A stretch of DNA of 25,512 nt from a virus, in IMG/VR virus record IMGVR_UViG_3300020152_000054, positions 1 through 25,512 of that record; one strand, 5' to 3'. Below, piece by piece: positions 23,984-25,512 of this stretch (position 1 is its first letter; each line of letters opens with the position of its first letter). A model generated the notes under the pieces. It saw only the letters and a list, made by a program, of their open reading frames with translations. It was not told where the DNA came from and ran no database searches. The position numbers and the translations under genes are program-made.

Positions 23984-24877
23984 ATGCTTCTCACCTCGGC
24001 AAGCCTCCTCGCGCTGGCCACCGGCTTCCAGGCCGCCTTCCAGCAGGGCTTCGGCGGCGTCCAGTCGCAGTGGAACCTGGTCGCCATGGAGACGCCTTCG
24101 ACCACGTCGGAGGAGACCTATGGCTGGATGAAGGACATCCCCGGCATTCGCGAGTGGATCGGCCCGCGCGTCGTCCACAACCTGGAGGCCGCGTCCTACA
24201 GCATCCGCAACAAGTCGTGGGAACTGACCATCGGCGTCGATCGCGACGCCATCGAGGACGACCGCTTCGGCGTCTACACGCCGATGTTCTCGGAGATGGG
24301 CCGGCAGACCGCCGAGTTCCCGGACACCCAGGTCTTCCCGCTGCTCAACGCCGGCTTCAGCAAGACCTGCTACGACGGCCAGTATTTCTTCGACACCGAC
24401 CATCCGGTGACCGCCGCGGACGGCAGCACCGTGTCGGTGTCCAACATGCAGGCCGGCGCCGGCACGCCGTGGTTCCTGATGGACCTCAGCCGGTTCATCA
24501 AGCCGATCGTCTACCAGAAGCGCCGGGCCTTCGACTTCGTGCGGAAGGACGCCGTCGCCGACCAGGCGGTCTTCGACCGCAAGCAGTACCTCTACGGCGT
24601 CGAGGGCCGGGCCAACGTCGGCTTCGGCTTCTGGCAGCTCGCGTTCGGCTCGAAGGCGACCCTCGACCACGACAACTACGCCTCGGCGCGCTCGGCGATG
24701 CAGAGCTTCAAGCGCGACCACGGGTCGCCGCTCGGCATCAACCCGACGCACCTGGTGGTGCCGCCGTCGCTGGAGGGCAAGGGCCGCCAGATCCTGGAGA
24801 ACCAGCGCAAGGCGAACGGCGAGGACAACGAGTGGAAGGGCACGGCCAAGCTCGTCGTCGTGCCCTGGCTCGCGTAA
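23984..24877 (+). CDS. T: Major head protein T (Mu gp34-like)
   Basis: A 297-aa protein of the Mu major head subunit family, close to Mu gpT in length (305 aa). Diagnostic parts: FQAAFQQGFGGVQSQWNLVA at the N-terminus, YGWMKDIPGIREWIGPRVVH, NKSWELTIGVDRDAIEDDRF, FDTDHPV, FLMDLSRFIKPIVYQKRRAF and INPTHLVVPPSLEGKGRQIL. It has the HK97 capsid fold by family. A GGGGGA box lies upstream. Directly downstream lies the gp35-like gene, then the tRNA-like region. Confidence 0.96.
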   Translation: MLLTSASLLALATGFQAAFQQGFGGVQSQWNLVAMETPSTTSEETYGWMKDIPGIREWIGPRVVHNLEAASYSIRNKSWELTIGVDRDAIEDDRFGVYTPMFSEMGRQTAEFPDTQVFPLLNAGFSKTCYDGQYFFDTDHPVTAADGSTVSVSNMQAGAGTPWFLMDLSRFIKPIVYQKRRAFDFVRKDAVADQAVFDRKQYLYGVEGRANVGFGFWQLAFGSKATLDHDNYASARSAMQSFKRDHGSPLGINPTHLVVPPSLEGKGRQILENQRKANGEDNEWKGTAKLVVVPWLA

Positions 24878-24892
24878 CCGGAGGTGCAGAGC

Positions 24893-25171
24893 ATGACCAA
24901 GCGCATCCTTTTCGTCACCGCCGCCCTCCTGATCGCCGCCCGCACGGCCCAGGGCTTCCGCCGCTGCGGCATCCATCACCCGCCCGAGCAGGTGCGCCAC
25001 CCGCCCGGCACCTTCGACGCGGCCCAGGTCGAGGCACTCAAGGCCGAGCCCAACCTGATCGTCGTCGAGGCCGAGCCGACCGCCGAGGAGATCGCGGCGC
25101 TGGAGGAGAAGGGCATCGGCACCGACCCGAAGAAGAAGGCCACCGGCAAGACGCCCGCGCCGGCGAGCTGA
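24893..25171 (+). CDS. Mu gp35-like small protein (FluMu N-terminal domain)
   Basis: A 92-aa protein beginning MTKRILFVTAALLIAARTAQ, with GGAGG eight bases upstream. The pattern A-R-x-x-x-G-F-R-R-C-G...HP...F-D/T-x-x-Q-V-x-A-L-K-A-E-P-x-L-I-V-x-E is that of the FluMu N-terminal (HI1506-like) family placed after the major head gene. The residues LLIAARTAQGFRR could look like a signal peptide but are part of the conserved domain. The Lys/Ala-rich tail is disordered. Function unknown, perhaps head-completion. Confidence 0.85.
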   Translation: MTKRILFVTAALLIAARTAQGFRRCGIHHPPEQVRHPPGTFDAAQVEALKAEPNLIVVEAEPTAEEIAALEEKGIGTDPKKKATGKTPAPAS

Positions 25172-25180
25172 CGAGACGCT

Positions 25181-25350
25181 GGGGCGCAAGCCCCGCACGA
25201 GCTGGGGAGGTCGCGGGTTCAAATCCCGCCCATGGCTTCGGCCATCGGTAGCACAGCCAGGCAGTGCACCCCGCTTGGGGAGGGTCGCGGGTTGAAATCC
25301 CGCCGGTGCTCGTCGCCGTAGCTCAGCCTGCTAGAGCATCCCCACTTTTC
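25181..25350 (+). ncRNA. Cluster of tRNA-like modules, permuted layout
   Basis: In order: a GGGGC-GCAA-GCCCC hairpin (25181-25194); a canonical variable loop and T-arm, AGGTC + GCGGG-TTCAAAT-CCCGC (25208-25229); an acceptor-like hairpin closed by a TTCG loop (25230-25248); TA and a D-arm GCAC-AGCCAGGCA-GTGC (25249-25267); CCCC-GCTT-GGGG (25269-25280); a second variable loop and T-arm GGGTC + GCGGG-TTGAAAT-CCCGC (25282-25303); a second closed acceptor-like stem (25304-25318); TA and a second D-arm GCTC-AGCCTGCTA-GAGC (25319-25337); then TCCCC and ACTTTTC. T-arm, closed acceptor, D-arm is the order of a circularly permuted tRNA (3' half before 5' half). No normal cloverleaf with a 7-base anticodon loop and CCA can be drawn. 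From memory, a structured RNA motif called Mu-gpT-DE has been reported downstream of gpT; this may be that class. Confidence 0.75.
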
Positions 25351-25352
25351 GC

Positions 25353-25386
25353 GGCCGGCCGATGCCTCTTACGGGGTCGGCCGGCC
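25353..25386. terminator. 10-bp GC hairpin after the tRNA-like cluster
   Basis: GGCCGGCCGA (25353-25362) and TCGGCCGGCC (25377-25386) pair perfectly over a 14-base loop. No T-run follows. It may end the RNA element, stop or slow transcription, or be part of the structured RNA. Confidence 0.55.
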
Positions 25387-25411: not shown

Positions 25412-25512
25412 ATGACGCCCGACCGCGCCGACCAGACCCTGCTCCGCATCGACCAGACCGGTAGCACGCGCGGCCAGCACTCCGCGGCGCTGCGATACAC
25501 GCGCAGCGTCGT
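25412..25512 (+). CDS. Start of an unidentified ORF, cut by the window edge
   Basis: ATG 25412 opens a frame without stop to the end: MTPDRADQTLLRIDQTGSTR... In Mu the next gene after gp35 is gp36 (DUF1320), but these residues do not resemble its usual start. No clear ribosome binding site (GCAAGATTGCC upstream). It may be a small phage gene or non-coding. Confidence 0.3.
   Translation, partial: MTPDRADQTLLRIDQTGSTRGQHSAALRYTRSV

What the first reader, a model, noticed from the sequence alone, without database searches (positions are those of the whole stretch)
25181..25350. tRNA-like array in circularly permuted order downstream of the major head gene
Two T-arms and two D-arms with tRNA-grade details (TA before each D-arm, variable loops AGGTC and GGGTC, canonical TTCAAAT T-loop in the first copy) are arranged T-arm, closed acceptor hairpin, D-arm, twice. 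Anticodon-stem halves can pair across each unit: TGGGG (25203-25207) with CCCCG (25269-25273), and GGGGA (25277-25281) with TCCCC (25339-25343). The acceptor stems close on loops of 4-5 bases (TTCG; CTCGT), leaving no room for a CCA end. So the RNA would fold as a tRNA mimic or permuted pre-tRNA rather than a normal tRNA. Alternative pairings exist because the stems are G/C runs; in particular the middle D-arm and second T-arm could form a linear tRNA-like unit with an anticodon arm of only 12-13 bases. Possible roles: mRNA 3'-end processing by RNase P/Z, recruitment of tRNA-binding enzymes, or expression control of head versus later genes.
Basis: partly seen in the sequence, partly recalled or inferred. 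Interest (0 to 1): 0.9.

Follow-up and report, generated by a model that had tools for sequence, protein, structure and literature searches.

The report
Paired phage tRNA mimics (YrlA-type)
A Mu-like phage carries, just after its head genes, two back-to-back RNA units that fold like tRNAs in circularly permuted order (the tRNA-mimic part of bacterial Y RNAs) but without the part that normally binds the Ro protein, and similar Ro-less pairs turn up in about a dozen phage lineages.

Summary
They match the effector half of Rfam YrlA (bacterial Y RNA; 38 and 32 bits, in the range of Y RNAs beside phage Ro genes). A covariance model built without the window finds both units at 62 and 61 bits (E~1e-13). 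Across eight phage arrays all four helices covary (0.441 vs 0.122 shuffled, 0/500). Unit 2 also swaps the tRNA tertiary pair G19-C56 to C19-G56 within the permuted unit, as a few ordinary phage tRNAs do. The linear-tRNA reading pairs only in the window. Unlike Ro-linked Y RNAs, tandem pairs lack the upstream UACUUC motif (0/12 vs 17/30 singles), and no Ro (TROVE) gene was found in the window or 14 other records with clear pairs. The pair is not conserved downstream of gpT: 8 of 75 relatives have tRNA-Met(CAT) there; one relative has a pair elsewhere in the head genes. Related arrays lie upstream of slipin-RtcB genes in bacteria. Verdict: a Ro-less, duplicated variant of the YrlA tRNA mimic. 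Role inferred: tRNA-elbow decoy or dock (about 0.4), or cis-acting mRNA element (about 0.3).

The parts
25203..25273 (+). Unit 1: permuted tRNA-mimic module (YrlA effector-domain type)
   Evidence: R2 (built without the window) 62.0 bits, E 3.4e-13; Rfam YrlA 32.0 bits
25277..25343 (+). Unit 2: second permuted tRNA-mimic module, with the swapped tertiary pair C19-G56
   Evidence: R2 60.8 bits, E 6.6e-13; Rfam YrlA 38.4 bits; T-loop TTGAAAT and D-loop ...TGCTA read from the sequence
25203..25207 (+). Unit 1 anticodon-like stem, 5' arm; pairs with 25269-25273
   Evidence: complementarity, covarying across arrays
25269..25273 (+). Unit 1 anticodon-like stem, 3' arm
25213..25229 (+). Unit 1 T-arm GCGGG-TTCAAAT-CCCGC
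   Evidence: sequence; helix 2 of A1, 100% paired
25230..25248 (+). Unit 1 acceptor-like hairpin closed by TTCG (one bulged C)
   Evidence: sequence; helix 3 covaries
25251..25267 (+). Unit 1 D-arm (G18 G19), preceded by T8 A9 at 25249-25250
   Evidence: sequence; helix 4, 100% paired
25274..25276 (+). Linker CTT between the units
   Evidence: sequence; other arrays have similarly short linkers
25277..25281 (+). Unit 2 anticodon-like stem, 5' arm; pairs with 25339-25343 (plus T25276-A25344)
25339..25343 (+). Unit 2 anticodon-like stem, 3' arm
25287..25303 (+). Unit 2 T-arm with G56 (TTGAAAT)
   Evidence: sequence
25304..25318 (+). Unit 2 acceptor-like hairpin closed by CTCGT
   Evidence: sequence; helix 3 covaries
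25321..25337 (+). Unit 2 D-arm with C19, preceded by T8 A9 at 25319-25320
   Evidence: sequence
25181..25194 (+). Upstream hairpin GGGGC-GCAA-GCCCC between the FluMu_N stop and unit 1; role unknown
   Evidence: sequence; similar hairpins seen by eye 5' of the L069, L105, L146 and L229 arrays, not tested statistically
25353..25386 (+). Strong hairpin after the pair, without a T-run (not terminator-like)
   Evidence: sequence; MFE fold; terminator scan found none
24884..25171 (+). FluMu_N-type ORF (95 aa) ending 31 nt before unit 1
   Evidence: Pfam PF17891 E 1.2e-10
23984..24877 (+). Mu-like gpT major head subunit
   Evidence: Pfam PF10124 E 8e-131
25412..25512 (+). Next ORF in the same direction (runs off the record), so the pair lies between two genes
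   Evidence: sequence

Best explanation
The element is a tandem pair of YrlA-type tRNA mimics, the effector half of a bacterial Y RNA, duplicated and without the Ro-binding half. It sits between two genes of the head region of a Mu-like phage. Shown here: its presence, the permuted fold by covariation including a tertiary swap, the absence of the UACUUC motif and of a Ro gene in the held sequence, and recurrence of such pairs in other phages. Inferred: the pair is transcribed with the head genes, each unit folds into an L-shaped body with a closed acceptor end and so cannot be charged, and the two exposed D/T-loop elbows bind or occupy host proteins that recognise the tRNA elbow (for example modification enzymes, or enzymes that cut or repair tRNA), acting as a decoy or dock in late infection.
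For: YrlA match to both units, in the range of Y RNAs beside a phage Ro gene (50, 39.6, 25.8 bits). Leave-out model: both units E~1e-13. Covariation 0.441 vs 0.122, 0/500; anticodon-like stems 0/20000 shuffles. C19-G56 swap in unit 2, paralleled in ordinary phage tRNAs of L436 and L518. No TROVE in the window or in 14 other records with clear pairs. UACUUC upstream of 0/12 pairs versus 17/30 single modules. Position 14-36 nt after a same-strand stop in the window, L069, L105, L108 and L229. YrlA is reported to be modified by DusA and TruB (PMC8394870) and has been suggested to compete for an anticodon nuclease (PMC7790460). Related bacterial arrays lie upstream of slipin-RtcB genes or near RtcR.
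Against: No expression, binding or phenotype data exist here; the decoy or dock role is inference. The pair is rare among gpT relatives (1 of 80) and its position varies, so it is not essential. The record is a 25.5 kb fragment, so a Ro gene elsewhere in the phage or host cannot be excluded. The mimics lack an anticodon loop, so nucleases that read the loop would not be fooled.
Confidence: 0.45

Rival explanations
1. A cis-acting element of the late mRNA: the two compact units protect the upstream gpT-FluMu_N message from 3' decay, or invite cutting by tRNA-processing RNases between the genes.
For: The pair lies 31 nt after a stop and 68 nt before the next ORF, with no promoter- or terminator-like site found; in L069 it lies between two head genes; eight relatives have a tRNA-Met, itself an RNase P/Z target, downstream of gpT.
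Against: Conserved D/T-loop tertiary nucleotides and the C19-G56 swap are more than a simple barrier needs; the closed acceptor gives no usual RNase P or Z ends.
Confidence: 0.3
2. It is a Y RNA for a Ro protein encoded elsewhere in the host or in the missing part of the phage.
For: The effector domain matches YrlA; Ro genes sit beside arrays in other phages.
Against: No UACUUC Ro-side motif; anticodon-like stems end after 3-6 pairs and run into a 3-nt linker; no TROVE in the window or in 14 other records with clear pairs.
Confidence: 0.08
3. A degenerate linear tRNA or a piece of a tandem tRNA cluster.
For: Rfam tRNA matches the middle region at 23.3 bits; in the window the middle linker can form a 4-bp stem; relatives have tRNA-Met downstream of gpT.
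Against: Linear pairing fails in 7 of 8 arrays; G19 of D-arm 1 and G56 of T-arm 2 could not pair; closed acceptor hairpins covary; ordinary tandem-tRNA junctions reach at most 54.6 bits with R1 versus 69-72 for the window.
Confidence: 0.04
4. A permuted pre-tRNA gene matured into a real tRNA, as in some algae.
For: Gene order T-arm, acceptor, D-arm.
Against: Acceptor loops of 4-5 nt in the window leave no leader, trailer or CCA; no anticodon loop; bacteria lack the splicing endonuclease used for such genes (own knowledge).
Confidence: 0.02

Closest known systems
YrlA bacterial Y RNA (Rfam RF02553; structure 6CU1)
   Same: Permuted T-arm, closed acceptor hairpin and D-arm, tRNA-core nucleotides, stem in the place of the anticodon stem
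   Different: Two units in tandem, 3-nt linker, no UACUUC motif, no Ro gene found, no RNA-repair genes found in the window
Phage-encoded Ro (TROVE) with Y RNAs (Brevundimonas phage Gurke, Xanthomonas phages Olaya and 10KY502B)
   Same: Same effector module (R1 57-65 bits) in phage genomes
   Different: Those have Ro genes close by and UACUUC upstream of most modules
tRNA
   Same: D-, T- and acceptor-like arms, T8-A14, R15-C48, G18-T55 and 19-56 positions
   Different: Permuted order, closed acceptor, no CCA, no anticodon loop
Mu-gpT-DE RNA motif
   Same: Downstream of Mu-like gpT (own knowledge of the family)
   Different: No Rfam match even at E 10

Membership tests
YrlA Y RNA | Permuted tRNA-like effector domain with closed acceptor | tested here: met
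YrlA Y RNA | tRNA tertiary-core nucleotides | tested here: met
   core T-loop and D-arm columns invariant in A1; 19-56 swapped but complementary in unit 2
YrlA Y RNA | Ro-binding basal stem with UACUUC-type motif | tested here: not met
   absent upstream of the pair; 0/12 pairs versus 17/30 single modules
YrlA Y RNA | Encoded near a Ro (TROVE) gene | tested here: not met
   none in the 25.5 kb record; the record is a fragment
YrlA Y RNA | Rfam gathering score (69 bits) | tested here: inconclusive
   not reached: 38 and 32 bits, but Ro-linked Y RNAs of phage Olaya also fall short (50, 39.6, 25.8)
YrlA Y RNA | Modified by TruB/DusA, bound by effector proteins | not testable with these tools
   needs biochemistry
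tRNA gene | Linear cloverleaf with anticodon loop and acceptor ends | tested here: not met
   ARAGORN none; Rfam tRNA below cut-off; linear pairing not conserved
Mu-gpT-DE | Match to the Rfam model | tested here: not met
   no match at E up to 10

The most novel reading that the evidence does not exclude
Ro-less paired tRNA mimics are a separate class of phage noncoding RNA, shaped like a tRNA whose acceptor ends are joined and whose break lies in the anticodon stem, used as decoys for host enzymes that cut, sense or repair tRNA during infection.
Probability: 0.2. Interest if true: 0.85.

Novelty: new variant of a known kind. Interest (0 to 1): 0.6.

Why it matters
Bacterial Y RNAs are known as partners of Ro proteins. 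A tRNA-mimic half that occurs alone, in pairs, in many phages without Ro suggests that the mimic has a function of its own, and offers small, Ro-free RNAs in which to find the still unknown partner of the YrlA effector domain. The swapped C19-G56 pair is a natural compensatory change at a tRNA contact that is nearly always G19-C56.

Tried and rejected
Linear middle tRNA: rejected and by the G19 x G56 clash. Tandem ordinary tRNAs: most of the first pattern hits were Ser-Pro and similar tRNA pairs called by ARAGORN and were set aside. Conserved gpT-linked element: rejected; the weak R1 hits downstream of gpT proved to be mostly tRNA-Met genes, and the nearest FluMu_N relative found (L458) has no pair there. 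Mu-gpT-DE: no match. Folding energy alone was uninformative. The key Y RNA papers (Chen 2014, Wang 2018, Sim reviews) are not held in the library, so whether Ro-less tandem pairs were noted there is unchecked.

Full report
What was checked. The window is a 25,512-base IMG/VR virus record with Mu-like transposase, portal, gpF, protease, gpT and FluMu_N-type genes. ARAGORN finds no tRNA and no Rfam family reaches its gathering score, but with a relaxed threshold YrlA (RF02553) matches both units, at 38.4 and 32.0 bits (E 5.5e-7 and 4e-5), ahead of tRNA at 23.3 bits.

Is the sub-threshold YrlA match meaningful? Y RNAs of Xanthomonas phage Olaya lie beside a TROVE-domain gene and score 50, 39.6 and 25.8 bits, also below the cut-off of 69. 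So the window's scores are in the normal range for phage Y RNAs. One caution: the YrlA model rings at E <= 0.001 in 7 of 14 control genomes, so I did not rest on it.

Relatives. Patterns for the permuted order and for the short D1-T2 spacing brought in viral and bacterial loci. ARAGORN calls were used to set aside ordinary tandem tRNAs. Clear tandem pairs remained in the window, L069, L105 (and copies L121, L178), L108, L146 (copy L156), L198, L229 (copy L264), L265, and later L511, L504, L463 and L497. In the ten contigs searched whole, nine have exactly two R1 matches and one (G010) has a third, weak one.

Fold. On 14 units from eight arrays, 93.3% of cells pair, 11 of 17 pairs have changes on both sides, and the covariation score is 0.441 against 0.122 in shuffles (0/500) and at most 0.118 in slid versions; all four helices contribute, including the closed acceptor and the anticodon-like stem. 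In a separate test the anticodon-like stems of 16 units total 66 Watson-Crick pairs against 26.5 +/- 4.4 when arms are re-dealt (0/20000); with 24 units it is 93 against 38.8 +/- 4.9 (0/20000), although three of the added units (504b, 463b, 497b) have only 1-2 pairs. The linear alternative gives a 4-bp mini-anticodon only in the window, and 0-2 bp in the other seven arrays.

Independent test. A model built without the window (R2) finds its two units at 62.0 and 60.8 bits; the next place scores 11.4.

Tertiary swap. Unit 1 has G19 and C56; unit 2 has TTGAAAT (G56) and TGCTA (C19). Within the permuted unit this keeps a pair; across units it would give G x G. G56 is rare among phage tRNAs in the scanned patterns: one contig with C19 (L518), one with G19 (L519, near a contig end), and a phage (L436-L438, near-identical contigs) whose two tRNAs both carry C19-G56. 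The numbers are small.

Ro. No TROVE match in the window, in ten array-bearing records, or in L511, L504, L463 and L497; L470, whose array lies in a tRNA cluster and was not counted as a clear pair, does have one in its record. UACUUC, seen upstream of Ro-linked Y RNA modules, is absent upstream of all 12 pairs. In a first list of single modules, partly chosen by eye, it was present in 16 of 18; in a list taken by score it was present in 17 of 30. So Ro-less single modules exist too.

Position. Among 80 gpT relatives only L069 has a strong pair, between the protease-like gene and the next head gene, not after gpT. ARAGORN finds tRNA-Met(CAT) downstream of gpT in eight relatives and a doubtful tRNA-Asp in a ninth, of 75 with enough sequence; L069 has both a pair and the tRNA-Met. 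Whether the pair replaced a tRNA is not shown. In the window, L069, L105, L108 and L229 the pair starts 14-36 nt after a same-strand stop codon (after SSB in L229); L265 and L497 lie among tRNA genes.

Bacterial relatives. Sphingobacterium (L361) and Niastella (L345) contigs carry multi-unit permuted arrays upstream of slipin (Band_7) and RtcB genes, Shimazuella (L324) upstream of a slipin gene, and Acidovorax (L370) near RtcR. No TROVE was found in the genomes behind L349, L324, L370 and L361 (G011, G013, G016, G030); Niastella (G012) has one on another contig from this array. RtcB was found in one of 11 array-bearing virus records, far from the array, and not in the window.

Literature. YrlA is described as a tRNA mimic modified by DusA and TruB, with a basal stem tied to Rsr (PMC8394870); phage Y RNAs are known (PMC12282133; PMC7765460; PMC7824862); a competitive-inhibitor role against an anticodon nuclease has been suggested (PMC7790460). 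I found no report of Ro-less tandem pairs in the held library, but the primary Y RNA papers are not held.

Verdict. A Ro-less, duplicated variant of the YrlA tRNA mimic. Identity as a permuted tRNA mimic: about 0.95. Function: decoy or dock for tRNA-elbow proteins about 0.4, cis-acting mRNA element about 0.3, the rest shared or unknown.

Noticed in passing
L083 (Gurke), L084 (10KY502B), L085 (Olaya): Genes annotated as hypothetical (FIG00441406 in the Xanthomonas phages) match TROVE and Ro60 vWA domains and sit beside unannotated Y RNA arrays; the annotated tRNA-Thr (L084 2964-3031) and tRNA-Ser (L083 3432-3506) overlap Y RNA modules and are probably miscalled.
   Followed up: partly
L024, L037, L044, L057, L059, L065, L069, L080: tRNA-Met(CAT) gene 340-762 nt downstream of gpT in eight Mu-like relatives.
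   Followed up: partly
L361, L345, L324, L370: Chains of permuted tRNA-like units upstream of slipin-RtcB genes (slipin only seen in L324) or near RtcR (L370) in bacteria.
   Followed up: partly
L436-L438, L518: Phage tRNAs with the tertiary pair 19-56 swapped to C19-G56.
   Followed up: partly
L283 4800-6350; also L257, L213: Phage tRNA clusters with many permuted-looking units and tRNA-like genes whose anticodon region is enlarged.
   Followed up: no
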